A stretch of DNA of 64,000 nt from Sinorhizobium meliloti 4H41 (GTDB taxonomy: Bacteria > Pseudomonadota > Alphaproteobacteria > Rhizobiales > Rhizobiaceae): contig NZ_AQWP01000002.1 in assembly GCF_000375585.1 (NCBI RefSeq), forward strand, positions 620,001 through 684,000. The letters are read 5' to 3'. This document shows, piece by piece, positions 22,277-37,730 of the stretch. A program made the position numbers and the translations under genes. How positions within the stretch are numbered: position 1 is the stretch's first letter; the number at the start of each line of letters is the position of its first letter. Under the pieces are notes generated by a model. The model had not been told where the DNA came from. It saw nothing but the letters and a program-made list of their open reading frames with translations, and made no database searches.

Positions 22277-23566
22277 ATGGCAACGGAGCGTGCTCTCCCC
22301 AATCTCTGGCATGCGACGGCACCGGCCGCTCCGCGCACCGCTCCGCTAGCAGGCGACCTGGCGGTCGAGGTGGCGATCGTCGGAGGTGGTTTCACTGGCC
22401 TTTCGGCCGCGCTTCATCTGGCCGAGACAGGCGTCAGGACGGCGGTGATCGAATCGCGGATGATCGGCTTCGGGGGTTCGGGCCGCAATGTCGGCCTGGT
22501 CAATGCCGGCATGTGGGTGCAGCCGGACGACCTGATTGCAACGCTGGGAGCAGCCGCGGGCAACCGCCTTCTCGACGAACTCGGCGACGGCCCGTCATTG
22601 GTCTATGATCTCGTTGCGAAACATGGAATCGAATGCGAAGCCGTTCGCAACGGCACGCTGCATATGTCGGTCGGTGCGGAAGGGCTCAAGGAAATCCGGG
22701 AGCGCGAGGCGCAATGGAAAAAACGCGGTGCTCCGGTTGAGGTGCTTTCGGCAGAAAAGGCGCACGCGCTTTCAGGGGCCGAGTGCTTCACAGGCGCACT
22801 GCTCGACCGTCGAGCCGGAACGATACAGCCGCTCGCCTATGCGCGGGGCTTGGCGCGTGCGGCGCTTGCCGCCGGCGCCGAAATCTTCACCGATACCCCC
22901 CTCCTTGCAGCCAGCCGGCAAGGCGATCTCTGGAAATTGAAGACCGGGCGTGGGACGGTCACGGCCCGTCACGTCATTCTCGCGACCAACGCCTATGGAA
23001 GCCTTGTCACCGATACCCCATGGAAGGAGTTCCGGCAGGAACTGACGATCCTTCCCTATTTCCAGTTCGCGACCAATCCGCTGCCCGACCACGTGGCCGA
23101 GCGCATATTGCCCGAACGCCAGGGGGCCTGGGACACGGGGCTGGTGATGACCTCCTTCCGCATGGACAAGCAGAACCGGCTGATTTTCGGATCGATCGGC
23201 AGGCTCGATGCGATCGCCGCGGGCACACACCGGGCCTTCGCCGCCCGGTCCGTGCGCAAGCTCTTCCCCTTTATCGGGGATTTCCGCTTCGAATATTGGT
23301 GGGACGGCCGCATCGGCATGACCACGAACAATCTGCCGGCCATGCATGTGCTCGCCCCGAATGTCGTATCGATCAGCGGATATAACGGCCGCGGCATAGC
23401 CCCAGGTACCGTCTTCGGCCGCGCGCTTGCCCGTCACGTCACCGGCGACACGTCCGCGATCCCGCTTGCCGAGACGCCGGTCACGCCGGATCCGTGGCGG
23501 ACTCTGAAATCCGTCTTCTACCACGCCGGCGCCCAGGCCAAGCATTTCATCGATAAAAGGTTCTGA
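22277..23566 (+). CDS. FAD-dependent amine oxidoreductase (PuuB/OrdL-like)
   Basis: A 429-residue flavoprotein of the DAO family. The FAD-binding Rossmann motif VAIVGGGFTGLSAA is at about residues 35-48, followed by IESRMIGFGGSGRNVGLVNAG, the pattern seen in gamma-glutamylputrescine oxidases and related N-alkyl amine oxidases. The C-terminal GYNGRGIAPGT closes the FAD site. It is transcribed toward the parA gene and is separated from the glutamine-synthetase-like cluster starting at 24.5 kb, so a functional link to that cluster is possible but not shown. Confidence 0.85.
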   Translation: MATERALPNLWHATAPAAPRTAPLAGDLAVEVAIVGGGFTGLSAALHLAETGVRTAVIESRMIGFGGSGRNVGLVNAGMWVQPDDLIATLGAAAGNRLLDELGDGPSLVYDLVAKHGIECEAVRNGTLHMSVGAEGLKEIREREAQWKKRGAPVEVLSAEKAHALSGAECFTGALLDRRAGTIQPLAYARGLARAALAAGAEIFTDTPLLAASRQGDLWKLKTGRGTVTARHVILATNAYGSLVTDTPWKEFRQELTILPYFQFATNPLPDHVAERILPERQGAWDTGLVMTSFRMDKQNRLIFGSIGRLDAIAAGTHRAFAARSVRKLFPFIGDFRFEYWWDGRIGMTTNNLPAMHVLAPNVVSISGYNGRGIAPGTVFGRALARHVTGDTSAIPLAETPVTPDPWRTLKSVFYHAGAQAKHFIDKRF

Positions 23567-23592: not shown

Positions 23593-24309
23593 CTACGCCG
23601 CCCGCGGCAAAGCCGAGCGCAGGCGGGACATCAGGGCGCGGCGTGCGGTCACGGGGAGCAGGTTCTGCACCTCGGCGGCAAGCGCGTATGCGTTTTCGCG
23701 CGCCTTGTCGAGATTGCTGACCCTGTTCGGGTCCATCATCTGCAGGGTGCCGCCGCACTCGAAGATTTCGCGATAGGCAACACGCTCGACGATCGGCGTA
23801 TCGAGGACCGAAACGCCGCGGGAGGCGAGCAGCGCCTTGATCGTCTGCAGCGCTCGCGTCGTCACCAGCGAATTGACGCGCGTCAACACGACCGAGTGGT
23901 TGATGCGTACCCTCGCCTTCTCTCCGATATGGCGGATAAGTTCAAGAATCTGTACGGCCCCCCGCGCATCCATGGCACAGCCCTGAACCGGTATCAGCAC
24001 GTGATCGGACAGACCCAGCGCCAACGCGACGATCGCGTCCTTGGCTCCGGCGAGGTCGATGACGATGAAATCGGCCTCACCCTTGAGTTCGCGGATATGA
24101 CAGGGAAGCGAAGCCGGAGTGACGTGCGAAATCACCTCGAGATTGGCGACACGGCCGGACACTTCGGACCAGCTCGTGATCCAGCGCTGCGGATCGGCGT
24201 CCAGTACCACGACGCGGTTTCCCTGCCTCGCCAGTTCCGTCGACAGGATCAGCGCCGCGGTCGTCTTTCCCGCACCGCCCTTTGCATTGGCGAATGTGAT
24301 GACCGCCAT
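23593..24309 (-). CDS. Orphan ParA/MinD family ATPase
   Basis: A 238-residue P-loop ATPase. The deviant Walker A KGGAGKTT is at residues 10-17, VVVLDADPQ is the A' motif, and FIVIDLAGAKD the Walker B. It lacks an N-terminal helix-turn-helix, so it belongs with short ParAs such as VirC1-like proteins rather than replication-linked RepA/ParA. No parB or centromere-like iteron is adjacent, so its cargo is unknown (plasmid, protein cluster or polar factor). Start chosen at 24309 because of GAGGTGAGAA just before it; the open frame to 24423 has no such site. Confidence 0.85.
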   Translation of the reverse strand: MAVITFANAKGGAGKTTAALILSTELARQGNRVVVLDADPQRWITSWSEVSGRVANLEVISHVTPASLPCHIRELKGEADFIVIDLAGAKDAIVALALGLSDHVLIPVQGCAMDARGAVQILELIRHIGEKARVRINHSVVLTRVNSLVTTRALQTIKALLASRGVSVLDTPIVERVAYREIFECGGTLQMMDPNRVSNLDKARENAYALAAEVQNLLPVTARRALMSRLRSALPRAA

Positions 24310-24465
24310 TTCTCTCACCTCGTCCTTGCTCGTTTCCGGTCCGCCGAGCGATGCACGGCGCGCGGTTTCCTTAATAGAACCTTGCAGAACATGGTTAACG
24401 AAATGGAAACTTTTGGCCCCCAAAAGTTAACCGTGGGGCGCATTTCCCGTTGAAGAGCAACGAAA

Positions 24466-24518: not shown

Positions 24519-25664
24519 TCAAATGCATTCGGCGAACAGCTTTTTGGCGGCATCGAGCGTCAGTTCGACGGGATTGCCGCCGGCCGTCGGATCGACGATC
24601 GCCATCTCGGCCATCTCGTCGATACGGTCCGTGCCGACACCAAGCGCCGACAGCTTGTCGGGAACGCCGAGTTCCTCCCGGAGCTGCAGCACATAGTCAT
24701 AGAAACCGTCGAAACCGCCCGCAATGCCGAGATAGGCGGCGGCGCGACCGATCTTCTCCTCGATCGCGGAGCGGTTGAACCGCAGGACCGGGGGCATCAC
24801 CACGGCGTTGGTCATGCCGTGATGGGTGTTGTAGATCGCGCCGACGGGATGCGACAGCGAGTGGATCGCGCCGAGCCCCTTCTGGAATGCGACCGCCCCC
24901 ATGGCCGCCGCGCTCATCATGTTGGCACGGGCTTCGAGATCCGTGCCGTCCTTGTAGGCGCGCGGCAGATATTCCTTGACGAGCCGCATGCCCTCGAGGG
25001 CGATACCTGCCGACATGGGGTGATAGAAGGGAGACGAATAGGCTTCGAGGCAATGGGCAAAGGCGTCCATGCCCGTGCCGGCGGTGATCACCTTGGGCAT
25101 GCCGACCGTCAGTTCCGGATCGCAGATCGTGACGCCAGGAAGGAACTTCGGATGGAAGATCACCTTCTTCACATGACTTGCCGAATTGGTGATGACGCTG
25201 GCGCGCCCGACTTCTGACCCGGTACCGGCGGTCGTCGGAACGGCGACGATCGGCGCGATACCTTCGACGCTCGCGCGGGTCCACCAGTCGCCGATATCCT
25301 CGAAGTCCCAGACCGGCCGCGTCTGGCCGGCCATGAATGCGACGCACTTGCCGAGGTCCAGGCCCGAGCCGCCGCCGAAGGCGACGACGCCGTCATGGCC
25401 GCCGTCACGGAACGCTTTCACGCCGGCTTCGAGGTTCCTGTCGTTGGGGTTCGGATCGACGTCCGCGAAGATCGCGCGTCCGAGGCCACCCGCTTCCAGA
25501 ATATCGAGCGCCTGCTGCGTGATCGCCATCGGGGCAAGTCCGCGATCCGTTATGAGCAGCGGCTTCTTGATGCCGAGCGCCTTGCAGTGGTCGGCAAGCT
25601 CCTTGATCCGGCCGGCGCCGAATTTGACGGCGGTCGGATAGCTCCAGTTGGCGGTGATGGTCAT
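24519..25664 (-). CDS. Iron-containing alcohol dehydrogenase
   Basis: A 381-residue group III (Fe-ADH) enzyme that oxidises an alcohol to an aldehyde with NAD. It shows the nucleotide-binding GGGSGLDLGK at about residues 94-103, VPTTAGTGSE, and the metal ligands Asp (TGMDAFAHCLEAY), with His in the same motif and in GAIHSLSHPVGA and NTHHGM. The ATG at 25664 overlaps the stop of the aldehyde dehydrogenase gene (ATGA). With that enzyme it forms a two-step alcohol-to-acid oxidation module, downstream of a glutamine-synthetase-like ligase. Substrate inferred to be a gamma-glutamylated amino alcohol; not proven. Confidence 0.92.
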   Translation of the reverse strand: MTITANWSYPTAVKFGAGRIKELADHCKALGIKKPLLITDRGLAPMAITQQALDILEAGGLGRAIFADVDPNPNDRNLEAGVKAFRDGGHDGVVAFGGGSGLDLGKCVAFMAGQTRPVWDFEDIGDWWTRASVEGIAPIVAVPTTAGTGSEVGRASVITNSASHVKKVIFHPKFLPGVTICDPELTVGMPKVITAGTGMDAFAHCLEAYSSPFYHPMSAGIALEGMRLVKEYLPRAYKDGTDLEARANMMSAAAMGAVAFQKGLGAIHSLSHPVGAIYNTHHGMTNAVVMPPVLRFNRSAIEEKIGRAAAYLGIAGGFDGFYDYVLQLREELGVPDKLSALGVGTDRIDEMAEMAIVDPTAGGNPVELTLDAAKKLFAECI

Positions 25665-27046
25665 GCGGTCACTTTCTTGAGGTGATAGGATTTCGGGCGG
25701 GTGAGGTTGTGGAAGCCGAGCACCGAGAGCGAGCCGCCCCGGCCGGTCTCCTTGACGCCGGTCCAGCACAGCGCCGGATCGAGATAGTCGGCGCGATTCA
25801 TGAAAACCGTGCCGGTTTCGAGCTCACTGCCGATCCGCGCCGCGCGCTCCGCATCCTTCGTCCAGAGCGACGCGGTGAGACCGTACCGGCTGTCGTTCAT
25901 CAATTCGATCGCCTCGGCGTCGCTCTTCACCTTCATGATGCCCACGGCCGGCCCGAAGGTTTCCTCGCGCATGAACTCCATGGAGTGATCGACGTCGACA
26001 AGGACTTGCGGCGCCAGATAGGCACCGCCATCGTCCTGCGGGAAGAGCTTCGGGTCGATCAGCGCCTTGGCACCCCTGGAGATCGCATCGGCGATCTGAT
26101 TGCGCACGGTTGCCGCAAAGCGCTTGTGTGCCATCGGACCGAGCGTCGTCTCCGGATCGAGCGGATTGCCGAGCTTGTAATTGGACGCCCAGGCGACCGA
26201 TTTCTCGACAAAGGCGTCGTAGAGCGACTCATGCACATAGATACGCTCGATGCCGCAGCAGCATTGGCCGGAATTGTAGGTCGCGCCGTCCATCAGCGTG
26301 TCGACGGCCGCGTCGAGGTCGGCATCCTCCATCACATAGCCAGGATCCTTGCCGCCGAGTTCGAGGCCGAGGCCGGTAAAGGTGCCGGCCGCCGCCCGCT
26401 CGATCGACCGGCCGCCTTCGACCGATCCGGTGAAGTTGATGAAGTCGAAGCTCTTGGCGGCAATCAGCGCCGCCGTCGTGTCGTGATCCAGGAACAGGTT
26501 CTGGAAAACGTCCGCCGGAACGCCCGCCTCGATGAAGGCGCGCACCATGCGCTCGCCGACGAGGATCGTTTGGCTGGCGTGCTTGAGGATCACGGTATTG
26601 CCGGCCATCAGCGCCGGCGCGACCGTGTTGATCGCGGTCATATAGGGATAGTTCCACGGAGCGATGACGAAGACGACGCCATGCGGCTCGCGCGCGATGC
26701 GCCGCTCGAAGCGGTCGCTCTCCTCCACGACGAGCGGCTTCAGCGCATCGGCCGCGATCGAAGCGACGTAATTGGAGCGCTCGTTGAATCCCTTGAATTC
26801 GCCGCCATAGCGCACCGGCCGGCCCATCTGCCAGGCGAGTTCCGGCACCACCTCGTCGACCATCTCGTTGAGGCGTGCCACGCCGGCAAGCACCAGCTTC
26901 ACACGTTCATCGAGCGGGCGCCTGGCCCAGGCCTTCTGCGCGAGGCGCGCATGTGCCACGGCCTGCCTCGCCATCTCCAGCGGCATTGCCGGGCGCTCGG
27001 CATAAACCTCGCCGTCGACCGGCGAAACACATCGGATCATCGTCAT
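25661..27046 (-). CDS. Aldehyde dehydrogenase family protein
   Basis: A 461-residue NAD(P)-dependent aldehyde dehydrogenase. Catalytic Glu lies in LELGGKDPGYV and the nucleophilic Cys in NSGQCCCGIERIYV (three consecutive Cys); NFTGSVEGGRS is the coenzyme-binding segment and MREETFGPAVGIMKV the usual late motif. Coupled by ATGA to the alcohol dehydrogenase. Upstream, an inverted-repeat element separates it from the glutamine-synthetase-like gene, though all are on the same strand. Probable role: oxidises the aldehyde made by the neighbouring ADH to an acid. Confidence 0.93.
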   Translation of the reverse strand: MTMIRCVSPVDGEVYAERPAMPLEMARQAVAHARLAQKAWARRPLDERVKLVLAGVARLNEMVDEVVPELAWQMGRPVRYGGEFKGFNERSNYVASIAADALKPLVVEESDRFERRIAREPHGVVFVIAPWNYPYMTAINTVAPALMAGNTVILKHASQTILVGERMVRAFIEAGVPADVFQNLFLDHDTTAALIAAKSFDFINFTGSVEGGRSIERAAAGTFTGLGLELGGKDPGYVMEDADLDAAVDTLMDGATYNSGQCCCGIERIYVHESLYDAFVEKSVAWASNYKLGNPLDPETTLGPMAHKRFAATVRNQIADAISRGAKALIDPKLFPQDDGGAYLAPQVLVDVDHSMEFMREETFGPAVGIMKVKSDAEAIELMNDSRYGLTASLWTKDAERAARIGSELETGTVFMNRADYLDPALCWTGVKETGRGGSLSVLGFHNLTRPKSYHLKKVTA

Positions 27047-27080
27047 GATCGTCTTCCTGTTCTCATTTCACAATGAATTC

Positions 27081-27232
27081 CCCTCCCCAACCCTCCGCAC
27101 GAGAGGGAGGGGCTTAGCTTGCGGCACCGCTCCCCACGGTAATTCGGCCATGCTCCTTGTGGAGGCATCGGCTTTCGATAGGAGGGTGCCGCAACGTAGC
27201 CCCTCCCCCTCGTGGGGAGGGATTGGGGAGGG
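27081..27232. repeat. Inverted-repeat intergenic element (152 bp)
   Basis: Two arms of about 48 bases, 27081-27128 and 27185-27232, are near-perfect reverse complements: each begins or ends with CCCTCCCCAA and carries a GGAGGGGCT block and a GCGGCACC end next to the loop. The 56-base centre is unrelated sequence. It fills the gap between the aldehyde dehydrogenase and the glutamine-synthetase-like gene. The layout is that of a small non-autonomous palindromic repeat of the kind dispersed in rhizobial genomes; as RNA it would fold into a long hairpin inside the operon transcript. Confidence 0.75.
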
Positions 27233-27237
27233 CGTTG

Positions 27238-28608
27238 TTACGCCCTTTCGAACCCGCGCGCGACCTCCCAGTCCGTCACCCGCCGGTCATATTCCTGCTG
27301 CTCCCATTCTGCGGCGTGCACATAATGATCGACAACCTCTTCGCCGAAAGCGGCACGCAGCATCTTCGAACCGGAAAGCGCCTCGCTCGCCTCTCTCAGC
27401 GTATGCGGGATCTCGCGCACCTCCTTGCCCTGATAGGCGTCGCCCACGAAGGGCGCCTCCAGTTCCATCTTGTTCTCGATGCCGGAAATGCCGGCCGCGA
27501 TCAGGGCGGCAAAGGCAAGGTACGGATTGAGATCGGAGCCGCCGACGCGGCACTCGATACGGATTGCCTTGCTGCCCTCACCGCAGAGGCGATAGCCGGC
27601 CGTGCGGTTGTCCTTGCTCCAGATCGCCTTGGTCGGAGCGAAGGTGCCGGCCATGAAGCGCTTGTAGGAGTTGATATAGGGCGCCAGGAAATAGGTTACC
27701 TCGCTCGCATGGGCGAGCTGACCGGCCACATAATGGCGCATGAGCTCAGACATGCCATACTGCCCGTTCTTGTCGAAGAACAGCGGCGTTTCTCCGTCCT
27801 TGCTCCAGAGCGACTGGTGAATGTGCGACGAGGAGCCGGCGGCCGAGTAGTTCCACTTGGCAAGGAAGGTGATCGCCTTGCCGCGCTGCCAGGCGATTTC
27901 CTTGCAGCCGTTCTTGATGATCGCATGCCGGTCGGCCATCGTCACGGCCTCGGCGTAACGGACGTTGATCTCCTCCTGGCCGGCGGACGCCTCGCCCTTG
28001 GAGTTCTCGACCGGGATCCCGGCACCCTGAAGACCGTTGCGGATCGCCCGCATCACATCCTCTTCCTTGGTCGTCTGGAAGATGTGGTAATCCTCGTTGT
28101 AGCCGCTGGCGAGCTGCAGGTCGCGATATCCCGAGAGCCTCGCATCGTCATAGGACTGATCGAAGAGGAAGAATTCGAGTTCGCTCGCCATATAGGCCTT
28201 GAAGCCCATGGCTTCGAGGCGCGCCACCTGCTTCTTCAAAATGGCGCGCGGCGAGTGCGGCACTTCCGCATGCGTGTCATGGTCCAGCATGTCGCAGAGG
28301 ACCAGCGCGGTGCCTTCGAGCCACGGAATGCGCCGGAGGGTCGAGAGGTCCGGCTTCATCGTGTAGTCGCCGTACCCTTTCTCCCAGCTCGTCGCCTTGT
28401 AGCCGGGAACGGTCTCCATCTCCATATCCGTCGCAAGCAGGTAGTTGCAGCTATGCGTCTCCTTCCATGCGCTTTCCACGAAATATTCCGCATGAAACCG
28501 CTTGCCCATCAGCCGGCCCTGCATGTCGACCTGGCAAGCCAGCACCGTGTCGATGCGGCCCTCGGCCACGTCTCTCTTCAAATCATCGAATGTATAGTTC
28601 GCGCTCAT
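27238..28608 (-). CDS. Glutamine-synthetase family gamma-glutamyl-amine ligase (PuuA-like)
   Basis: A 456-residue glutamine-synthetase superfamily protein, class I/III fold. Visible motifs: SELEFFLFD (metal-binding Glu), AGQEEINVRY, SAAGSSSHIHQSL (the His loop) and RIECRVGGSDLNPYLAFAA at the end. It lacks the Tyr adenylylation loop of GlnA and resembles PuuA/GlnA4-type enzymes that join glutamate to an amine using ATP. Flanked by TRAP transporter genes upstream and ALDH/ADH downstream, it probably gamma-glutamylates the imported amine. The ATG at 28608 follows AGGACC; an upstream alternative at 28656 is weaker. Confidence 0.9.
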   Translation of the reverse strand: MSANYTFDDLKRDVAEGRIDTVLACQVDMQGRLMGKRFHAEYFVESAWKETHSCNYLLATDMEMETVPGYKATSWEKGYGDYTMKPDLSTLRRIPWLEGTALVLCDMLDHDTHAEVPHSPRAILKKQVARLEAMGFKAYMASELEFFLFDQSYDDARLSGYRDLQLASGYNEDYHIFQTTKEEDVMRAIRNGLQGAGIPVENSKGEASAGQEEINVRYAEAVTMADRHAIIKNGCKEIAWQRGKAITFLAKWNYSAAGSSSHIHQSLWSKDGETPLFFDKNGQYGMSELMRHYVAGQLAHASEVTYFLAPYINSYKRFMAGTFAPTKAIWSKDNRTAGYRLCGEGSKAIRIECRVGGSDLNPYLAFAALIAAGISGIENKMELEAPFVGDAYQGKEVREIPHTLREASEALSGSKMLRAAFGEEVVDHYVHAAEWEQQEYDRRVTDWEVARGFERA

Positions 28609-28702
28609 GGGAAGGTCCTGGTTCCGGTCTGCTACCGGTAGAATTGTTCCGTCCATCTCCGGGGCCGCATCGCAGCCCCGGGTGTCAGTTGCTGGGCCCC
28701 GA

Positions 28703-29752
28703 TCAGGTATAGCGATAGGGCGGCCCGGCCTTTTCCATTGTCTCGCGGTACTTCTTCAATATCTCTACGACCTTGGCCGCGCGCGGGCTGGTGGCAGCAA
28801 TCTCGTCCCAGAATTTCAGGGCCTCCGCTTCAACCGTTTTCCATTCCTCGTCCGGAATGGTCGTCAGTTCCAGCTTGGTGCCTTCGGCGCGCAACTTCGC
28901 CTCGCCGCCCCAGTACCAGTGCTGGCGATAGTAATGCGAGGAGTCGATGCAGAGGCGGAACAGCGTCTGCAGATGCTCCGGCACCTCCTTCCACCGTGCG
29001 GAGTTCGCAAAAAACGATCCGCACCAGGCGCCGGAGATATTGTTCGTCAGGAAGTACTTGGTGACGTCCGCCCAGCCCACCGTGTAGTCCTCGGTAATCC
29101 CCGACCAGGCGAGCCCGTCGAGTTCGCCCGTCTGCATGGCGACCTGCACGTCCTCCCAGGGCAGAGTGACGGGAACGACGCCGAAACGCGTCAGAAACTT
29201 GCCCGCGGTCGGGAAGGTGAAGATGCGCAGGCCCTTGAGGTCCGCAAGCGTCTTGATCGGCTTCACCGTTGCAAAGTTGCAGGGATCCCAGGATCCGGCC
29301 GAAAGCCAGGTGACCCCTTCGACTTCTCCGTAGGCTTCGGCCCAGATCTCGTTGAGGCCGTACTGATGAAAGAGCGTCGGCACGTCCAGGCTGTAGCGCG
29401 AAGCGAATGGGAAATAGCCGCCGAATACCTTGATGTCGACCGGTGAAGCCATCGAGTCGTCGTCGCTCTGAACCGCATCGATCGTACCGGCCTGCATGGC
29501 GCGGAACAATTCGCCGGTCGGCACGAGCTGATCGGCGGTGTAAAGGTCGATCTGCATCTCGCCATTGGCGGCCTTGTTGAAGGCATCGATCGCCGGCTTG
29601 ATGACATGTTCGGCGAGCGCCGGGCCGGCATAGGTCTGCAGGCGCCAGGTGATCTTTCCGGATTGCGCACGCACTGCCGGGGCAGCAAGCGCCGTCGTTC
29701 CGGCCGCGGCTGCAAGCCCGGCCTTCTTCAGAAAATCGCGTCTGTTGGTCAT
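28703..29752 (-). CDS. TRAP transporter solute-binding protein (DctP family)
   Basis: A 349-residue periplasmic receptor with a Tat signal (NRRDFLKK, then a hydrophobic stretch to AVRAQ). The body fits DctP/TAXI-independent TRAP receptors (TADQLVPTGELFRAMQAGTIDAV; LADLKGLRI; DVQVAMQTGELDG). At the position following GL(K/R)I, where most family members have the carboxylate-binding Arg, this protein has Phe (GLRIFTF). The ligand cleft region is rich in Trp/Tyr (SSHYYRQHWYWGG). Both hint at a non-carboxylate, possibly amine, ligand. It is the last of the dctQ-dctM-dctP block. Confidence 0.92.
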   Translation of the reverse strand: MTNRRDFLKKAGLAAAAGTTALAAPAVRAQSGKITWRLQTYAGPALAEHVIKPAIDAFNKAANGEMQIDLYTADQLVPTGELFRAMQAGTIDAVQSDDDSMASPVDIKVFGGYFPFASRYSLDVPTLFHQYGLNEIWAEAYGEVEGVTWLSAGSWDPCNFATVKPIKTLADLKGLRIFTFPTAGKFLTRFGVVPVTLPWEDVQVAMQTGELDGLAWSGITEDYTVGWADVTKYFLTNNISGAWCGSFFANSARWKEVPEHLQTLFRLCIDSSHYYRQHWYWGGEAKLRAEGTKLELTTIPDEEWKTVEAEALKFWDEIAATSPRAAKVVEILKKYRETMEKAGPPYRYT

Positions 29753-29848
29753 GTCCGTTTCCCTCTGTTTTCGTTCAACGTTCACTTCTTTTTCGGAGCC
29801 CCCCATCGGAAGGTCTCACCTCTTGCGGCGCAAGGCGCCGGCTCCCCG

Positions 29849-31174
29849 TCAGCCCTTCACATAGACATGGTGCGGCAGCCACAGTGCGATCTCCGGAAAC
29901 GCCGTCACGATTGCCAGTCCCACGAGCATCACCAGGACGAAGGGGAGCACCGATCTGTAGATGTCCATCAGCGATATCTCGGGAGGAGCCATCGCACGCA
30001 TCAGGAACAGGTTGTAGCCGAAGGGCGGAGTCATGTAGGCGATCTGGCAGGTTATCGTGTAGAGCACGCCGTACCAGATCAGATCGAAGCCGAGGCTGCC
30101 GACGAGAGGTATGTAGAGCGGGGCGACGATCACCAGCATGGCTGTGTCGTCGAGGAACGTGCCCATGACCAGATAGGAAAGCTGCATCAGGATCAGCACT
30201 TCCCACGGGCCCAGCCCCCATTTCTCCAGGAACAGGAACTCGATCGCCTTGACCGCTCCCAGACCGTCGAAGACCGCACCGAAGCAGAGCGCTGCCAGGA
30301 TGATCCACATGAACATGCAGGAGATGCCGAGTGTCTGCTCGATCGTCTTGTCGAAAACGGTCCATGTCAGACGCCCCTTCCACCAGGCCGCTACGAGGGC
30401 AGAAAGCGCCCCCACGGCGGAGCTCTCGACAAGGCTTGTGACGCCCATCACGAAGAGGCCCATCATCAGAAAGAAGATCATGAAGGGGAGGATGCCGGCG
30501 CGTAACAGCTTGAGCTTTTCGGCAAGCGGGACGTTCCGCTCCTCCTTGGGAAGCGCGGGCCCAAGATGCGGCTGTATCTTGCAGCGAAAGACCACATAGA
30601 TCGAAAACAGCAGTGCCAGAAGCAACCCCGGAAACACGCCTGCAAGCCAGAGCTGCCCCACCGGCTGACGCGCGATCATGCCGTAGAGCACCAGCACGAC
30701 GCTCGGCGGAACCAGAATGCCGAGTGAACTGCCCGCCTGAATGACTCCGGTCACCATCGTCTTGTCGTAGCCGCGGCGCAGGAGCTCGGGCAGCGCAATG
30801 GTCGCGCCGATCGCCATTCCCGCAACGCTGAGTCCGTTCATCGCGGAAATGATGACCATCAGCCCGATGGTGCCGAGCGCAAGCCCGCCGCGCAGGCCGC
30901 CCATCCACACGTGGAACATCTTGTAGAGATCCTCGGCGATCCCGGACTCCGACAGCATGTAGCCCATGAAGATGAAGAGCGGCAAAGTGAGCAGCGGATA
31001 CCATTTCATCAGCTTCATCGAAGCGGCGAAGGCCATCTCGAAGCCGCCATTGCCCCAGAGGAAGGCAGCCGAAACCGCGCCGACGACACCGATGGCCGCG
31101 AAGACCCTTTGCCCGGTCAGCATCGTCATCATCATGGACGAGAACATCATGAAGGCGATCATCTCGTAGCTCAT
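29849..31174 (-). CDS. dctM: TRAP transporter large permease (DctM)
   Basis: A 441-residue inner-membrane protein of about 12 hydrophobic segments, the sodium- or proton-driven translocating subunit of a TRAP system. Typical features are PLFIFMGYMLSESGIAEDLY near the first third, GATIALPELLRRGYDK, and IQAGSSLGILVPPSVVLVLYG. The ATG at 31174 overlaps the dctQ stop (ATGA). The gap to dctP is 96 bases. Substrate is set by the neighbouring binding protein and is inferred to be an amino alcohol or similar. Confidence 0.93.
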   Translation of the reverse strand: MSYEMIAFMMFSSMMMTMLTGQRVFAAIGVVGAVSAAFLWGNGGFEMAFAASMKLMKWYPLLTLPLFIFMGYMLSESGIAEDLYKMFHVWMGGLRGGLALGTIGLMVIISAMNGLSVAGMAIGATIALPELLRRGYDKTMVTGVIQAGSSLGILVPPSVVLVLYGMIARQPVGQLWLAGVFPGLLLALLFSIYVVFRCKIQPHLGPALPKEERNVPLAEKLKLLRAGILPFMIFFLMMGLFVMGVTSLVESSAVGALSALVAAWWKGRLTWTVFDKTIEQTLGISCMFMWIILAALCFGAVFDGLGAVKAIEFLFLEKWGLGPWEVLILMQLSYLVMGTFLDDTAMLVIVAPLYIPLVGSLGFDLIWYGVLYTITCQIAYMTPPFGYNLFLMRAMAPPEISLMDIYRSVLPFVLVMLVGLAIVTAFPEIALWLPHHVYVKG

Positions 31175-31680
31175 GCGATCGGCCTCCCCATCGCCCGGGC
31201 AAGGTCCTTGATGAAGATGGACGTTGCCTGCAGGAGAGTGAGTGCGATGCCTATCGTCATGACGATCTTGATCGGCGCCATGTAGGGTGCCCAGCTCGAA
31301 TAGCTGGTCTCACCGTATTTCAACGCGTAAGCAGTGCTGGAAACGCCCCCATAAAGCAGGAAGCCCAGATAGACGAAGAGCATGAGGATGGTGATCGCAT
31401 CGACCGCAGCGCGCGTGCGCGCAGTCCAGCGGCCATAGACCAGGTCCATACGCACGTGGCTGTCGAGCTGGAGCGAATAGGCCCCACCCAGCAGGTAGTA
31501 TGCCGCCATGACGAATTGTGCCATTTCGAGCGTCCAGAGCGACGGCAGCAGCCAGGCCTTCGATACGGACGAATAGAGCAGAATGCCCATCATCGCGAAG
31601 ATCAGATACATGGTCGTCCGGCCGACGCGGCGATTGAAGCCGTCGACCGTCCGCACATAGGTTTTCAAATATTCAGGCAT
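31171..31680 (-). CDS. dctQ: TRAP transporter small permease (DctQ)
   Basis: A 169-residue inner-membrane protein with four hydrophobic segments, matching the DctQ subunit of TRAP importers. It carries the family pattern of a central QLDSHVRMDLVYGRW, close to the conserved HVRVD motif. Its stop overlaps dctM (ATGA). Upstream, 127 bases separate it from the amidohydrolase gene; the whole set probably forms one transcript. Confidence 0.9.
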   Translation of the reverse strand: MPEYLKTYVRTVDGFNRRVGRTTMYLIFAMMGILLYSSVSKAWLLPSLWTLEMAQFVMAAYYLLGGAYSLQLDSHVRMDLVYGRWTARTRAAVDAITILMLFVYLGFLLYGGVSSTAYALKYGETSYSSWAPYMAPIKIVMTIGIALTLLQATSIFIKDLARAMGRPIA

Positions 31681-31807
31681 CGCGGCGCCCTGCCCCGCGC
31701 GCGCCGTCAGGACGAGGAAGCTCCCCTCCCATAGCTGCCGATCCGATCATGGGCTGCATCTCTCCTGTTCACCGTCATCACCGCGGCTTCGCCGCTCCCC
31801 GGGTCTA

Positions 31808-32581
31808 TTATTGTGCCGGAAGGGCAACCGCGCTCGTTGCGAGCAGCCCCGCCAGATAATCGGCCATGACCCTTTGGCCGACTTTATCGCGGATGAGATC
31901 GTTGCGGATCTCGATCATGACGTTGGGCACGCCAAGGCGGATACCGTATTCGATCAGACTGTGCGTCACGCCGTCGGCCGGTCCGTAAGGTTCGTTGCGG
32001 CGGACGTCGTATCCCGCCTCCGCGGTCGCCGCGGCGGCAAGCATGCGCTCCGCGAGCCGGCTGTCCGCATCGTGCAGAATGCCGAGCTCGACGGTCCGCG
32101 GCTTGCCGAAATAGATCGGCGTGAAACTGTGTATGGTCACGAGAACCGGCCCTCTGCGCGCGGCCTTGCGGTCTGCCACCGCGCGCGTGACCGCCGCGTG
32201 AAACGGCAGGTAAATCTCCTGGATCCGCGCCTGCCGCTCCGCGGCCGACAGGGCGACGTTGCCGGGCACCTCATAGGTCTCGCTGACGGAAGGCATCGCC
32301 GCAGCCGCTTCCGGCGGTCTGTTGCAGTCATAGGCAAGCCGCGAAAAACGCTGATGAATCAAGGTGCCATCCAGCTCTTTGGAGAGCAGCCGGGAGACAG
32401 CCAACGCGCCGGGATCCCAGGCGATATGGCTTTCGAGCGCTTCTCCGGAGAGACCGAGCGTTCCCAGGCGTTCGGGCATACGGTTCGAGGCATGCTCGCA
32501 GACGAAGAGAAAATCTCCCGCTGCTTCAGCGTTCTCGATCGCGACCGGGTCGCCCTCTGCCTCAGTCAAAAGTCTCGTCAA
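31808..32581 (-). CDS. N-formylglutamate amidohydrolase (HutG-like) family protein
   Basis: A 257-residue zinc-type hydrolase. FLFVCEHASNRMP, AWDPGALAV, DCNRPPEA, VTIHSFTPIYFGKPR and MIEIRNDLIRDK are all family blocks with metal- and substrate-binding His/Glu/Arg. Histidine-degradation genes are absent nearby. Instead it heads a TRAP/gamma-glutamyl-ligase/ADH/ALDH cluster, so it may hydrolyse an N-acyl or gamma-glutamyl amide intermediate rather than formylglutamate. First gene of the minus-strand unit; the intergenic region with RpiR at 32582-32751 holds paired operator-like sites. Confidence 0.88.
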   Translation of the reverse strand: MTRLLTEAEGDPVAIENAEAAGDFLFVCEHASNRMPERLGTLGLSGEALESHIAWDPGALAVSRLLSKELDGTLIHQRFSRLAYDCNRPPEAAAAMPSVSETYEVPGNVALSAAERQARIQEIYLPFHAAVTRAVADRKAARRGPVLVTIHSFTPIYFGKPRTVELGILHDADSRLAERMLAAAATAEAGYDVRRNEPYGPADGVTHSLIEYGIRLGVPNVMIEIRNDLIRDKVGQRVMADYLAGLLATSAVALPAQ

Positions 32582-32616: not shown

Positions 32617-32632
32617 TGAAGAGAATTCTTCA
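32617..32632. promoter_or_regulatory. Operator-like palindrome 1 (TGAAGA-N4-TCTTCA)
   Basis: An inverted repeat with perfect 6-base arms, TGAAGA and TCTTCA, 36 bases from the start of the amidohydrolase gene. It matches the TGAA-N8-TTCA frame of the second site 42 bases away. Possible binding site of the divergently encoded RpiR regulator. Confidence 0.5.
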
Positions 32633-32751: not shown

Positions 32752-33630
32752 TTGAACGGCAACACGGCTTCCATGACGGTGTCGGATGTGATCAGCGCAC
32801 ATTTCGCCGCGCTGACGCGCGCCGAAAGGCAGTTGGCGGAGACACTTCTCGATAATTACCCGGTCTCCGGTCTCGGCTCGATCACCACCGTTGCAGAGAA
32901 CGCCGGCGTTTCGACGCCGACGGTCGCCCGCATGGTTCAGAAGCTCGGTTTTCGCGGCTTCCCGGACTTTCAGGCACGGCTTCATCAGGAGCTCGAGGCG
33001 ACGATTTCCAATCCGATCGCGAAGCACGACCGCTGGGCGGCCAGCGCGCCGGGAACCCATACGCTCAACCGCTTCGCCGACGCGGTCATGGGAAACATGC
33101 GCCAGACGCTGTCGCAGATCGAGCCCGCGGAGTTCGACACGGCCGCCGCACTCGTTGCCGATTTGAAGCGCAGGGTCTATCTCGTCGGCGGGCGCATCAC
33201 CCGCTCTCTCGCGGATTACCTCTTCACTCATCTTCAGGTCATCCGAACCGGCGTGACGCAGATCGCCGCGAACCCGAGTTCGTGGCCGCATTACGTGCTG
33301 GACATGCGCCCGGGAGACGTCCTCATCCTGTTTGACATCCGCCGTTACGAGCAGGAAATGGAAACGCTCGCCCGCTCCGCCCGAGACCGCGGCGTCGAGA
33401 TCATCCTCTTCACGGACCAGTGGGGCTCTCCGGTCGCCAAGTCTTCATCGAAGGTTTTCCGCGCCCGGATCGAGGTTCCCTCCGCATGGGACAGTTCCGT
33501 CATGCTGCTCTTCCTCGTGGAGGCGCTGATCGAGGCGGTACAGAGCTCGAACTGGGACCAAACCCGGGACCGGATGAAGACGCTGGAGGGCCTGTTCGAT
33601 TCCACCCGCATTTTCCGCAAGCCGGTCTAG
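32752..33630 (+). CDS. MurR/RpiR family transcriptional regulator with SIS domain
   Basis: A 292-residue regulator. Residues about 8-85 are an RpiR helix-turn-helix (LTRAERQLAETLLDNYP, then VAENAGVSTPTVARMVQKLGFRGFPDFQ). Residues about 120-270 form a SIS sugar-phosphate-binding domain (VYLVGGRITRSLADYL; GDVLILFDIRRYEQE). The probable start is the TTG at 32752, preceded by AGGGGACGACA; the first ATG (32773) has no such site. It is divergent from the amidohydrolase/TRAP operon and 186 bases upstream of an ABC importer, so it could regulate either or both. Confidence 0.9.
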   Translation: MNGNTASMTVSDVISAHFAALTRAERQLAETLLDNYPVSGLGSITTVAENAGVSTPTVARMVQKLGFRGFPDFQARLHQELEATISNPIAKHDRWAASAPGTHTLNRFADAVMGNMRQTLSQIEPAEFDTAAALVADLKRRVYLVGGRITRSLADYLFTHLQVIRTGVTQIAANPSSWPHYVLDMRPGDVLILFDIRRYEQEMETLARSARDRGVEIILFTDQWGSPVAKSSSKVFRARIEVPSAWDSSVMLLFLVEALIEAVQSSNWDQTRDRMKTLEGLFDSTRIFRKPV

Positions 33631-33816
33631 GAGGGCTCCGGCGGCTTGAATTCTCTGATGGAAGAGCATTCAGGCGACATTCGAATGCAACCGGGGCGGA
33701 TTGCTCCGAAGCCGACATATCTGCCGCAGGCGGGACAAAGCCTGTCACATAAGCTTCATCGCATATCTTTAACTGCATCGGCGAAATTGACTGAAAACCC
33801 AATAAGGAGAACCCCA

Positions 33817-34920
33817 GTGATTTCAAGGACTCAACGCCTGCTCTCGCTTTCGACCGCCATGCTGCTCGCAACGACGGCAGTAGCCGTTGCCGAGCCGAGC
33901 GAAGAGCTCATCGCAGCCGCCAAGAAGGAAGGCACGCTGACGACAATCGCGCTCCCGCACAATTGGTGCGGGTACGGCGACGTGATCGCCGGCTTCAAGG
34001 CCAAATACGGCATCGAAGTCAACGAACTGAACCCGGATGCGGGCTCCGGAGACGAGATCGAGGCGATCAAGGCCAACAAGGGCAACACCGGCCCGCAGGC
34101 ACCCGACGTCATCGACGTCGGCCTCTCGTTCGGTCCCTCGGCCAAGGCCGAAGGCCTGATTCAGCCCTACAAGGTCTCTACCTGGGACACGATTCCGGAC
34201 ACGGCCAAGGATCCGGAAGGCTATTGGTACGGCGACTATTACGGCGTTCTCTCCTTCGTGGTGAACACCGATATCGTCAAGGACGTGCCGAAGGACTGGG
34301 CGGACCTCAAGAAGTCCGACTATGCGAACTCGGTCGCCCTCGCCGGCGATCCGCGCGCATCCAACCAGGCGGTGCAGGCGGTCTATGCCGCCGGCCTCGC
34401 GGCCGGCGAAACCGATGCGGCAAAGGCCGGGGAAGCGGGCCTGGCCTTCTTCGCCGAGGTCAACAAGGCCGGCAACTTCGTCCCGGTCATCGGCAAGTCC
34501 GCCTCGCTTGCGCAAGGCTCGACGCCGATCATCATCGCCTGGGACTATAACGGCCTCTCCTGGCGCGACAGCCTGAACGGCAACCCGCCGGTCGAAGTCG
34601 TCGTCCCGGCCTCCGGCGTCGTCGCCGGCGTCTACGTGCAGGCGATCTCTGCCTTCGCTCCGCATCCGAACGCCGCCAAGCTCTGGATGGAATATCTTTA
34701 TTCGGACGAAGGTCAGCTCGGCTGGCTGAAGGGCTACTGCCACCCGATCCGCTTCAACGACCTCGTCAAGAACGGCAAGGTTCCGCAGGAAATGCTCGAC
34801 AAGCTGCCGCCGGCCGCATCCTACGAAAAGGCCGTGTTCCCGACACTCGACGAGCAGGCCAAGGGCAAGGAAGCGATCACCACCAAATGGGACAGCGTCG
34901 TCGGCGCGAGCGTGCAGTAA
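33817..34920 (+). CDS. ABC transporter periplasmic binding protein (PotD/FbpA-like)
   Basis: A 367-residue secreted receptor. The GTG at 33817 follows AAGGAGA at ideal spacing and begins a signal peptide (VISRTQRLLSLSTAML... cleaved near AVAEP). The mature part opens AAKKEGTLTTIALPHNW and fits the type II binding proteins of spermidine/iron(III)/phosphonate-like importers. LSWRDSLNGNPPVEVVVPASG and HPNAAKLWMEYLYSDEGQ are standard late blocks. Ligand unknown. First gene of a four-gene importer operon behind the RpiR regulator. Confidence 0.9.
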   Translation: MISRTQRLLSLSTAMLLATTAVAVAEPSEELIAAAKKEGTLTTIALPHNWCGYGDVIAGFKAKYGIEVNELNPDAGSGDEIEAIKANKGNTGPQAPDVIDVGLSFGPSAKAEGLIQPYKVSTWDTIPDTAKDPEGYWYGDYYGVLSFVVNTDIVKDVPKDWADLKKSDYANSVALAGDPRASNQAVQAVYAAGLAAGETDAAKAGEAGLAFFAEVNKAGNFVPVIGKSASLAQGSTPIIIAWDYNGLSWRDSLNGNPPVEVVVPASGVVAGVYVQAISAFAPHPNAAKLWMEYLYSDEGQLGWLKGYCHPIRFNDLVKNGKVPQEMLDKLPPAASYEKAVFPTLDEQAKGKEAITTKWDSVVGASVQ

Positions 34921-34997
34921 CCGCCATTGCGTACCTCCCCGCCTCGTACGTGGCGGGGAGGTCATTTTCCTCCGACGCCGGGACAGCCGAAAGCTTT

Positions 34998-35879
34998 ATG
35001 ACCACGACAACAGCAGCAGCACCCCTGATCAGCAAACGAGCGATCATCGACTGGCTGGGCATCGCGCCCTTCATGATTTTCGCGCTGATGTTCCTGGTCG
35101 TTCCGACGCTCTATCTCGTCACCGGCGCCTTCCTCACGCCTGCAGGCGAGTTCACCTTCAAGAATATCGGCGATCTCTTCACGCCCTCGATCCTCTCCGC
35201 CTACTGGATTTCGATCCGCGTATCGGTCGCCTCCTCGCTCGGCGGCGCGCTCATCGGCTTTTTCCTTGCGTGGGCGATCGTGCTTGGCGGGCTGCCGGGC
35301 TGGATTCGCTCCGGGCTCCTCACCTTTTCCGGCGTCGCCTCCAACTTCGCGGGCGTTCCGCTCGCCTTCGCCTTTCTCGCCACCCTCGGCCGCACCGGTC
35401 TTGTCACCGTGTTTCTGCGCGACTGGTTCGGCTTCAATCTCTATTCGACGGGGTTCAATCTCCTGAGCTTCCTCGGCCTCACCATCACCTACATGTATTT
35501 CCAGATCCCGCTGATGGTGCTGATTCTTACGCCGGCGCTCGACGGCATGAAGAAGGAATGGCGCGAAGCTTCCGAAATTCTCGGCGCCTCCACCTGGCAA
35601 TACTGGCGCATGGTGGCGCTGCCGATCCTCTGGCCGAGCCTGCTCGGCACGACGCTCCTGCTCTTCGCCAACGCCTTCGGCGCGATCGCCACCGCCTACG
35701 CGCTGACCGGCAGTTCGCTCAATATCGTGCCGATCCTGCTCTATGCGCAGATCCGCGGCGACGTGCTCCATAATCCGAATCTCGGCTATGCGCTGGCGCT
35801 CGGCATGATCGTCATCACCGGCATCTCCAATATTCTCTACATCTGGCTGCGGATGCGCGCCGAACGGTGGCAGAAATGA
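34998..35879 (+). CDS. ABC transporter permease 1
   Basis: A 293-residue inner-membrane permease with about six hydrophobic segments and the cytoplasmic EAA loop (EWREASEILGASTWQYWRMVALPILWPSL region) that contacts the ATPase. It corresponds to PotB/FbpB-type first permeases. The ATG at 34998 is 78 bases after the binding-protein stop; the longer open frame from 34887 overlaps that gene and is rejected. Its stop overlaps permease 2 (ATGA). Confidence 0.9.
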   Translation: MTTTTAAAPLISKRAIIDWLGIAPFMIFALMFLVVPTLYLVTGAFLTPAGEFTFKNIGDLFTPSILSAYWISIRVSVASSLGGALIGFFLAWAIVLGGLPGWIRSGLLTFSGVASNFAGVPLAFAFLATLGRTGLVTVFLRDWFGFNLYSTGFNLLSFLGLTITYMYFQIPLMVLILTPALDGMKKEWREASEILGASTWQYWRMVALPILWPSLLGTTLLLFANAFGAIATAYALTGSSLNIVPILLYAQIRGDVLHNPNLGYALALGMIVITGISNILYIWLRMRAERWQK

Positions 35880-36664
35880 AAGCAAGACGTCTCGGTGCCT
35901 GGATCGCCATCGCCATCGGAGCGAGCTATTTCATCGTCCCGCTGCTCGGCACGCTGGAATTCTCGCTGCGCATGCGCCGCGATGCCTATTCCTTCGACGC
36001 TTACCGGTCGGTCTTCTCCGACTTCCAGTTTCGCGAGACCTTCGGCTATTCGATGCTGATGGCGTTTTTCACGATCATCTTCGGCATGCTGCTGGTGGTG
36101 CCGACCGCCTACTGGGTGCGGCTGCGCCTGCCCCAGGTCCGCCCCGTCATCGAGTTCATCACGCTGCTGCCGCTCGTCATTCCGGCGATCGTCATCGTCT
36201 TCGGCTATCTCAGACTCTATAATTCCTCATCGTTCCTGCCGCTGACCGGCTCCACTTCCGGGACCAATGCGCTCCTGATGTTCTCCTACATGACGCTGTC
36301 GCTTCCCTATATGTACCGCGCCGTCGACACGGCGATGCGGGCCATCGATGTCAGAACGCTGACCGAGGCCGCGGAAAGCCTCGGCGCCAAATGGCCGACC
36401 ATCCTCTTCCGCTGCATTTTCCCGAATGTGATGAGCGGCGTGCTTTCCGGTGCCTTCATCACCTTCGCGATCGTCATGGGCGAATTCACCATGGCGGCGC
36501 TCCTCAACCGCCCGGCCTTCGGCCCCTATCTGCAGCTTGTCGGCGCCAACAAGGCCTACGAGCCTTCGGCGCTCGCCGTCATCGCATTCGCGATCACCTG
36601 GCTCAGCATGGGATTGATCCAGCTCGTATCGCGCTTCCAGAAATCCGCTCCGGCCAAGGCTTGA
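35876..36664 (+). CDS. ABC transporter permease 2
   Basis: A 262-residue inner-membrane permease of the PotC type, six hydrophobic segments, with its EAA loop at TEAAESLGAKWPTILFRCIFPNVMSG. The ATG at 35876 overlaps the stop of permease 1. Four bases separate its stop from the ATPase gene's ATG, so permease and ATPase are tightly co-expressed. Partners: binding protein 33817, permease 34998, ATPase 36669. Confidence 0.9.
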   Translation: MKARRLGAWIAIAIGASYFIVPLLGTLEFSLRMRRDAYSFDAYRSVFSDFQFRETFGYSMLMAFFTIIFGMLLVVPTAYWVRLRLPQVRPVIEFITLLPLVIPAIVIVFGYLRLYNSSSFLPLTGSTSGTNALLMFSYMTLSLPYMYRAVDTAMRAIDVRTLTEAAESLGAKWPTILFRCIFPNVMSGVLSGAFITFAIVMGEFTMAALLNRPAFGPYLQLVGANKAYEPSALAVIAFAITWLSMGLIQLVSRFQKSAPAKA

Positions 36665-36668
36665 TCAC

Positions 36669-37730
36669 ATGGCATTCCTGCAACTGACCAACATCCAGAA
36701 ATCCTTCGGCCCGGTTCAGGTCGTGCATAATTTCGACATGGGGATCGACAAGGGCGAGTTCGTCTCCTTCCTCGGCCCCTCCGGCTGCGGCAAGACGACC
36801 ATACTGCGCATGATCGCCGGCTTCGAAACGCCGTCCGGCGGCTCGATCTTCATCGACGGCAAGGACCAGGGCACGCTGAAGCCCAACCAGCGCAATATCG
36901 GCATGGTGTTCCAGTCCTACGCACTCTTTCCCAACATGAATGTTCACGACAATGTCGCCTTCGGCCTCAAGGTCGCCGGCGCCTCCAAAACGGAGATCGA
37001 GGCTCGGGTGAAGCAGATGCTCGGACTGATCAAGCTCGAGCATCTGGCGGACCGTTTCCCCTATCAATTGTCCGGCGGACAGCAGCAGCGCGTGGCGCTT
37101 GCCCGCGCCCTCGCCGTCAAGCCGCAGGTGCTGCTCCTCGACGAGCCGCTCTCCGCGCTCGATGCAAAAATCCGCATCTCGCTGCGGGAGGAGATCCGGC
37201 AGATCCAGCAGCAGCTCGGCATCACCACGGTATTCGTGACGCACGACCAGGAAGAGGCACTGTCGATCTCCGACCGGATCGTCGTCATGAATGCCGGCCG
37301 CGCCGATCAGATCGGCACCCCTTTCGAGATCTACAACACCCCGGCCACACGATTCGTCGCCTCCTTCGTCGGCACGCTCAACATCATCGAGGGCAAGGTG
37401 GCCGATCCCGCAAGCGGCGCGGTCACCATAGGCGGGCAGCGGATTTCGCTGAAAGAGCCGATAGCCGGGGCAAAGGGCGGCGACAGCATTTCGCTGGCAC
37501 TCAGGCCGGAAGCAGGCTCAATCGCCGAGGGCGCCAGGGGCGATACCGCACTTCCGGGCCAAGTCGTATCGAGGAGTTTTCTCGGCTCCGTCATCCGCAC
37601 CAAGCTGCGGGTCGGCGAAGACATCATCTCCTTCGATATGTTCAACGATCCGGGCATGACCCCGCCGGTCGCCGGCGAGAGCGTCACGCTGCGCTTCGCG
37701 GCAAAGGACCTGCTCGTCATCCGCGAATAG
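36669..37730 (+). CDS. ABC transporter ATP-binding protein (PotA/FbpC-like)
   Basis: A 353-residue ATPase energising the importer. Walker A GPSGCGKTT at about residues 37-45, Q-loop FQSYALFP, signature LSGGQQQRVALARAL, Walker B VLLLDEPLSALD, and switch His in VTHDQEEAL are all canonical. The C-terminal about 110 residues form a TOBE regulatory domain (IIEGKVADP; LALRPEAGS). Last gene of the operon; followed by about 115 bases before the FMN riboswitch. Confidence 0.93.
   Translation: MAFLQLTNIQKSFGPVQVVHNFDMGIDKGEFVSFLGPSGCGKTTILRMIAGFETPSGGSIFIDGKDQGTLKPNQRNIGMVFQSYALFPNMNVHDNVAFGLKVAGASKTEIEARVKQMLGLIKLEHLADRFPYQLSGGQQQRVALARALAVKPQVLLLDEPLSALDAKIRISLREEIRQIQQQLGITTVFVTHDQEEALSISDRIVVMNAGRADQIGTPFEIYNTPATRFVASFVGTLNIIEGKVADPASGAVTIGGQRISLKEPIAGAKGGDSISLALRPEAGSIAEGARGDTALPGQVVSRSFLGSVIRTKLRVGEDIISFDMFNDPGMTPPVAGESVTLRFAAKDLLVIRE

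What the first reader, a model, noticed from the sequence alone, without database searches (positions are those of the whole stretch)
24519..32581. Candidate gamma-glutamyl-amine (ethanolamine-like) catabolic cluster with its own TRAP importer
Seven minus-strand genes combine a HutG-like amidohydrolase, TRAP QMP, a PuuA/GlnA4-like ligase, an aldehyde dehydrogenase and an iron alcohol dehydrogenase. This fits uptake of an amino alcohol, gamma-glutamylation of its amine, oxidation of the alcohol to aldehyde then acid, and hydrolysis to recover glutamate. A TRAP-linked route for ethanolamine as nitrogen source was reported from solute-binding-protein screening (Vetting and co-workers, as I recall); I infer this cluster belongs to that kind. 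Histidine-pathway genes, the usual home of HutG, are absent.
Basis: partly seen in the sequence, partly recalled or inferred. Interest (0 to 1): 0.72.

Follow-up and report, generated by a model that had tools for sequence, protein, structure and literature searches.

The report
Ethanolamine nitrogen operon with swappable importer
This is a known kind of bacterial operon that imports ethanolamine, a breakdown product of membrane lipids, and dismantles it to recover nitrogen; less expected is that related species keep the same enzymes but have a different importer in the same spot.

Summary
In detail: seven minus-strand genes (24519-32581) encode an FGase-family amidohydrolase, TRAP Q, M and P, a glutamine-synthetase-like ligase, an aldehyde dehydrogenase and an iron alcohol dehydrogenase. 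The receptor is 70.5% identical to the ethanolamine receptor Csal_0678 (ligand per PMC12410723), and the gene order equals the Phaeobacter MED193 ethanolamine operon (PMC10132767).

Added here: (1) an inverted repeat TGAAGA-N4-TCTTCA at 32617-32632, at one place only in the genome, is the likely operator. (2) In 33 genomes of the genus, ligase and hydrolase are always found, but the slot between them holds TRAP in 11, an APC-type permease in 21 and an ethanolamine-permease-like protein in 1, with four changes on the flanking-gene tree. (3) In 80 receptor loci, one ligase class occurs with this hydrolase (23) and another with a class-I-amidotransferase-like protein (22), without crossing.

Function in this organism is inferred from homology; nothing was assayed.

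The parts
24519..25664 (-). Iron-containing alcohol dehydrogenase; proposed gamma-glutamylethanolamide dehydrogenase (start at ATG 25664; ORF runs to GTG 25769)
   Evidence: PF00465 160.5 bits and PF25137 144 bits; no NCBIfam equivalog reaches its cut-off; order as in MED193
25661..27046 (-). Aldehyde dehydrogenase; proposed gamma-glutamylacetaldehydeamide dehydrogenase
   Evidence: PF00171 404.1 bits; no NCBIfam equivalog reaches its cut-off in the 25 shown of 45
27238..28656 (-). GS-like ligase; proposed gamma-glutamylethanolamide synthetase (likely start at an internal ATG near 28608)
   Evidence: PF00120 347.9 bits; 11zs and 5dm3; E327 position is F339
28703..29806 (-). TRAP receptor (DctP, EtoX-like) with Tat-type signal (likely start at an internal ATG near 29752)
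   Evidence: 4uab E 5e-161; 227 of 322 identical; E239 conserved; TAT signal TIGR01409 24.2 bits, cut-off 16.7
29849..31174 (-). TRAP large permease (DctM, EtoW-like)
   Evidence: PF06808 224.4 bits
31171..31680 (-). TRAP small permease (DctQ, EtoV-like)
   Evidence: PF04290 61 bits
31808..32581 (-). FGase-family amidohydrolase; proposed gamma-glutamylglycine amidohydrolase
   Evidence: PF05013 153.1 bits; best solved relative 2odf, hypothetical protein Atu2144, E 4.1e-89
32617..32632 (.). Inverted repeat TGAAGA-N4-TCTTCA, predicted RpiR operator
   Evidence: Only place in the genome; 15 of 16 positions invariant in 33 of 33 genus genomes; wider loci
32773..33630 (+). MurR/RpiR-type regulator (HTH_6 + SIS), divergent (ORF from TTG 32752)
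   Evidence: PF01418 59.2 bits, PF01380 70.3 bits; RpiR gene at the same place in MED193

Best explanation
A complete ethanolamine-utilisation operon of the gamma-glutamylation type. The TRAP receptor binds ethanolamine in the periplasm and the Q/M permease carries it in. The ligase uses ATP to join its amine to the gamma-carboxylate of glutamate. The iron alcohol dehydrogenase and the aldehyde dehydrogenase oxidise the protected alcohol to gamma-glutamylglycine. The FGase-family amidohydrolase splits this into glutamate and glycine, so that the nitrogen enters general metabolism. The RpiR regulator probably represses at an inverted repeat overlapping the likely promoter. Shown here: gene content, order, families, orthology, residue and motif conservation. 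Shown by others for relatives: ethanolamine binding and higher protein levels on phosphoethanolamine (Phaeobacter), and the pathway in two other species as reported there. Inferred: each catalytic step in this organism, and the regulator's role and site.
For: Receptor: 4uab E 5e-161, next relative 1.5e-19; 70.5% identity; E239, my equivalent of ligand-binding Glu220, present in 4uab, the window and 80 of 80 loci (role of Glu220 from PMC12410723); F196 stands where 2hzk has the Arg that PMC4646407 ties to carboxylates and says Csal_0678 lacks. Ligase: E327 position is Phe as in GlnA4; the GS fold's Glu212, His269 and Arg321 positions are kept. Order equals MED193 and two annotated plasmids. No EutB in this genome. 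In one genus genome the importer slot holds a protein close to the ethanolamine permease model (344.3 bits, cut-off 381.75).
Against: No assay exists for these proteins. No NCBIfam model names the enzymes above its cut-off. The Glu220 equivalence rests on an inferred +3 numbering offset. D50 lies in a poorly aligned stretch: the window has Pro there, but L072 and the four second-class ligases have Asp and L019 Glu in that column, and my probes for E131, E220, E357 and R359 failed. The 21 APC permeases in the slot match only general amino-acid permease models, all below cut-off, so they do not by themselves point to ethanolamine.
Confidence: 0.92

Rival explanations
1. Same chemistry, other main substrate: a related amino alcohol such as alaninol, serinol or isopropanolamine, with ethanolamine secondary.
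For: The same enzymes could act on such amines (inference); 30% of receptor residues differ from Csal_0678, and contacts other than Glu220 were not mapped one by one.
Against: Receptor orthologues from C. salexigens and Phaeobacter bind ethanolamine; the acidic contact and many aromatic residues are invariant in the 80 loci.
Confidence: 0.05
2. A polyamine (Puu-like) or other gamma-glutamyl-amine pathway.
For: The ligase has weak similarity to gamma-glutamylputrescine synthetase (200.6 bits, cut-off 650); an FAD oxidoreductase of the DAO family lies nearby at 22277-23566.
Against: That oxidoreductase is separated by a ParA gene on the other strand, matches L-pipecolate oxidase best (448 bits, below cut-off 600) and is absent beside the Paracoccus and Ruegeria operons; an alcohol dehydrogenase has no place in putrescine breakdown (established knowledge).
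Confidence: 0.02
3. Unrelated genes: a dicarboxylate TRAP transporter, a HutG N-formylglutamate deformylase and an ordinary glutamine synthetase side by side.
For: General family names.
Against: TIGR02017 20.3 bits against 278.75; Phe at the carboxylate Arg position; ligase lacks the E327 residue; a true GlnA lies elsewhere (677 bits on TIGR00653); the set is kept as a unit.
Confidence: 0.01

Closest known systems
Phaeobacter sp. MED193 ethanolamine operon RpiR-GGAH-EtoV-EtoW-EtoX-ETAGA-GAADDH-GETADH (PMC10132767, passages)
   Same: Same eight gene types in the same order; same receptor family.
   Different: Host is a marine Roseobacter; here an ABC transporter operon follows RpiR.
Chromohalobacter salexigens Csal_0678 receptor and pathway (4uab; PMC12410723 and PMC4646407 passages; original paper not held)
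   Same: Receptor 70.5% identical over 322 residues.
   Different: Its operon layout was not seen here.
Streptomyces coelicolor GlnA4 ethanolamine route (PMC6529630, passages)
   Same: Gamma-glutamylethanolamide synthetase, then predicted dehydrogenases and an FGase-family hydrolase; Phe at the E327 position.
   Different: The passages name no TRAP importer and a different regulator, EpuRI; the listing counts 'ethanolamine permease' 19 times in that paper.
Eut (EutBC ammonia-lyase) pathway
   Same: Same substrate.
   Different: Different chemistry; EutB absent from this genome and found in 11 of 33 genus genomes.

Membership tests
Gamma-glutamylation ethanolamine operon with TRAP importer (EtoVWX type) | TRAP receptor orthologous to the ethanolamine receptor | tested here: met
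   4uab E 5e-161; 227 of 322 identical; E239 conserved
Gamma-glutamylation ethanolamine operon with TRAP importer (EtoVWX type) | Order RpiR, hydrolase, Q, M, P, ligase, ALDH, Fe-ADH | tested here: met
Gamma-glutamylation ethanolamine operon with TRAP importer (EtoVWX type) | Receptor binds ethanolamine | not testable with these tools
   Needs purified protein
Gamma-glutamylation ethanolamine operon with TRAP importer (EtoVWX type) | Ligase makes gamma-glutamylethanolamide | not testable with these tools
   Only residues compared
Glutamine synthetase (ammonia ligase) | Acidic residues at D50 and E327 | tested here: not met
   Phe at E327; Pro in the D50 column, which is poorly aligned
HutG N-formylglutamate deformylase (TIGR02017) | Score above the curated cut-off | tested here: not met
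   20.3 bits against 278.75
Eut pathway | EutB large subunit present in the genome | tested here: not met
   0 matches; E. coli control positive

The most novel reading that the evidence does not exclude
The operon has an exchangeable importer slot. Within one genus the catabolic enzymes and flanking genes are kept, while the importer between hydrolase and ligase has been replaced about four times among three transporter types (binding-protein TRAP, APC-type permease, ethanolamine-permease-like). Over the receptor's wider range, ligase and hydrolase also come as two matched pairs that do not cross. Selection on uptake (affinity, energy cost, competing amines) would then act separately from the catabolic core.
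Probability: 0.6. Interest if true: 0.42.

Novelty: new member of a known kind. Interest (0 to 1): 0.28.

Why it matters
Ethanolamine comes from phosphatidylethanolamine, so the operon links membrane-lipid turnover to nitrogen supply; PMC10132767 (passages) estimates the receptor gene in about 5 to 10% of ocean bacteria. In this genome, which lacks EutB, it is the likely ethanolamine route. The importer exchange offers a natural comparison of a binding-protein importer and a permease serving the same enzymes in related species, and a single predicted operator makes the regulator directly testable.

Tried and rejected
Recent transfer of the TRAP genes into G028 was considered because its receptor protein is 98% identical to the window's and its ligase 89%. 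At DNA level they are 86.2% and 84.6%, so I dropped it.

Replacement of a block that includes the hydrolase was considered for G013 (hydrolase 79%, regulator 98% at protein level). Sliding DNA identity breaks down from about 28500 to 31750, the importer; the hydrolase stays at about 78-88%. One more gap (122 bases in 27001-27250) coincides with an intergenic palindromic element of the window; beyond 35750 the fetched G013 stretch ends.

Polyamine and HutG readings were rejected (see rivals). Structure prediction was not run, since solved relatives exist. The original Vetting paper was not held. ALDH against solved structures at E 1e-95 and the APC permease at 1e-5 gave nothing. A listing search for Sinorhizobium, ethanolamine, nitrogen source and glutamine synthetase gave three papers, by title off topic.

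Results against or limiting my reading: the 80 loci are the best 80 of 584 confirmed, found through six peptide patterns and so biased to close relatives. Several stretches are short, so absence of a gene from a locus is weak. The genus set and the 80 loci overlap (five contig lengths coincide). Which importer is ancestral is not settled; the deepest forks of the core tree have SH-aLRT 15 and G025 was left out of it (contig lacks ALDH and ADH). Hydrolase and regulator trees need 6 changes in all; starred branches force 4 and 3 for the APC label and 3 and 3 for TRAP. The shared label could also reflect old duplicates lost differently. Stops inside the matched stretch are listed for one receptor (G001), one ligase (G030) and four APC permeases (G015, G029, G031, G032); I did not look where they lie. 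The operator reference comes from the window and its shuffles keep base composition only; 4 of 23 loci with close RpiR (L012, L026, L043, L057) did not stand out. A first, stricter look for GAATTC-centred sites found them in 13 of 33 loci, 4 of these (L017, L021, L022, L025) without the flanking arms.
Full report
WHAT IS THERE. The window is G000:C2:620001-684000 of a 6.79 Mb genome in 46 contigs. The nearest named relatives of its receptor gene are Sinorhizobium and Ensifer (93-98% protein identity), so I take the organism to be of that genus. In transcription order: FGase-family amidohydrolase 32581-31808, DctQ 31680-31171, DctM 31174-29849, DctP receptor 29806-28703, GS-like ligase 28656-27238, ALDH 27046-25661, Fe-ADH 25664-24519. 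A divergent MurR/RpiR regulator lies at 32773-33630.

WHICH SUBSTRATE. The receptor's best solved relative is 4uab/4xf5 (E 5e-161; the next, 2hzk, 1.5e-19). PMC12410723 and PMC4646407 (passages) state that Csal_0678 of Chromohalobacter salexigens binds ethanolamine, the first giving 4uab as the complex. Aligned with the 4uab stretch, 227 of 322 window residues are identical. E239, my equivalent of the ligand-binding Glu220 (a +3 numbering offset is inferred), is present in 4uab, the window and 80 of 80 loci. PMC4646407 ties one Arg to carboxylate binding in TRAP receptors and says Csal_0678 lacks it; the window has F196 where 2hzk has that Arg in the alignment (that this 2hzk residue is the Arg-147 equivalent is my reading).

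WHICH PATHWAY. PMC10132767 (passages) describes RpiR, GGAH, EtoV, EtoW, EtoX, ETAGA, GAADDH, GETADH in Phaeobacter MED193, the order found here. It reports higher levels of several of these proteins on phosphoethanolamine, a Kd of 7.9 uM for ethanolamine, and says closely related genes were demonstrated as an ethanolamine pathway in C. salexigens and A. tumefaciens C58. P. denitrificans PD1222 plasmid 1 and a Ruegeria sp. B32 plasmid have the same eight genes in the same order. The ligase departs from glutamine synthetase where GlnA4 does: Phe (F339) at the E327 position (F331 in GlnA4, PMC6529630 passage), with the Glu212, His269 and Arg321 positions kept. The D50 column is poorly aligned: Pro in the window, but Asp or Glu in some related ligases. 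The genome has seven Gln-synt_C matches, one of them a true GlnA (677 bits on TIGR00653, cut-off 429.15). EutB is absent here and found in 11 of 33 genus genomes.

REGULATION (prediction). Between hydrolase and RpiR lies TGAAGAGAATTCTTCA (32617-32632), an inverted repeat TGAAGA-N4-TCTTCA. That pattern occurs at one place in the genome, with 0 for the reversed control. In the alignment of this intergenic stretch from 33 of 33 genus genomes, 15 of its 16 positions are invariant (ten rows printed, marks computed on all). In 33 wider loci with an RpiR homologue, a similar repeat stood out (at most 0.015 of 200 shuffles as good) in 19 of 23 with RpiR at least 60% identical and in 0 of 10 with RpiR at 54% or less. 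A TTGACA box on the minus strand (32650-32645) would place the -10 region inside the repeat (my reading; the match to the -10 consensus is poor, 3 of 6; consensus recalled). This fits a repressor site. The ligand of the regulator is unknown.

IMPORTER EXCHANGE. In 33 genus genomes, own included, the ligase is found in 33 (89-100% identity) and the hydrolase in 33 (at least 74%). The receptor orthologue is found in 11 (at least 93%); in the other 22 the best-scoring receptor match is 25-29% identical. I fetched the locus of the 32 other genomes and mapped the genes. The slot holds TRAP in 11. In 21 it holds an APC-type permease (PF13520 176.6 bits; best NCBIfam model TIGR00907, below cut-off; positions). 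In 1 (G018) it holds a protein with 344.3 bits on TIGR00908 ethanolamine permease, below its cut-off of 381.75. None of the 11 TRAP genomes has the APC permease at E 1e-100. On a DNA tree of ligase, ALDH and ADH (32 genomes, G025 left out) the three importer labels need 4 changes, and starred branches force 4 for the APC label and 3 for TRAP. Hydrolase and regulator trees need 6, with 3-4 forced. Against G013, identity collapses over the importer and not over its neighbours. A listing search of the open library for this exchange gave one paper, off topic by its title; subscription papers are not covered, so I do not claim it is unpublished.

TWO LIGASE-HYDROLASE PAIRS. In the 80 receptor loci (best 80 of 584) the ligases fall into a class at 65.7-97.4% identity to the window's (25 loci) and a class at 31.7-34.4% (45 loci). 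By locus: first class with FGase 23 (one, L026, also has a more distant GS-like gene); first class without FGase 2; second class with a PF00117 class-I-amidotransferase-like protein 22; second class without it in the stretch 23; no ligase in the stretch 9; L062 unclear 1. FGase with only the second class: 0. Amidotransferase-like with the first class: 0. I infer that the amidotransferase-like protein is the alternative gamma-glutamylglycine hydrolase; this is untested, and the classes also follow taxonomy.

VERDICT. Observation and interpretation hold. The system is already described and this is a new member with the published gene order.

Noticed in passing
33646-37730 (+): ABC transporter operon downstream of RpiR: receptor weakly like 2-aminoethylphosphonate receptors (62-63 bits, far below cut-off) and best solved relative 5t1p (E 1e-61); ATPase near PhnT2 (417.5 bits, cut-off 457.7). 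The receptor gene is beside RpiR in 10 of 80 loci, all Rhizobiaceae by title, and in 33 of 33 genus stretches. Substrate unknown; a phosphonate or another ethanolamine-related compound is conceivable.
   Followed up: partly
33646-36664 (+) and L099, L105, L106, L109, L101, L119, L122: In the genus the ABC receptor and permeases come at about 85-100% or, in some genomes (for example G001, G006, G007, G011, G012, G021, G024), only 60-75% identity to the window's, as if this transporter too had been exchanged.
   Followed up: no
27080-27232: Palindromic element (35-nt arms, 83% complementary) between ligase and ALDH; partial relatives at two other places in the genome; a 122-base gap in 27001-27250 suggests it is missing in G013.
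   Followed up: partly
22277-23566 (+) and 23593-24423 (-): FAD oxidoreductase like L-pipecolate oxidase AmaA (448 bits, cut-off 600) and a ParA-family ATPase next to the operon; both conserved beside it in most of the genus stretches fetched.
   Followed up: no
L018, L019, L035, L040, L043, L046, L047, L048, L057: Nine loci (seven Kiloniella, two Rhodospirillales MAGs by title) have RpiR, FGase, TRAP and ligase but no ALDH or ADH in the stretch (the stretches of L046 and L057 end soon after the ligase), so the oxidation genes lie elsewhere or differ.
   Followed up: no
L031:4296-5051 (+): Class-I glutamine-amidotransferase-like gene in second-class ethanolamine clusters (22 of 80 loci; PF00117 64 bits), probably replacing the FGase-type hydrolase.
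   Followed up: partly
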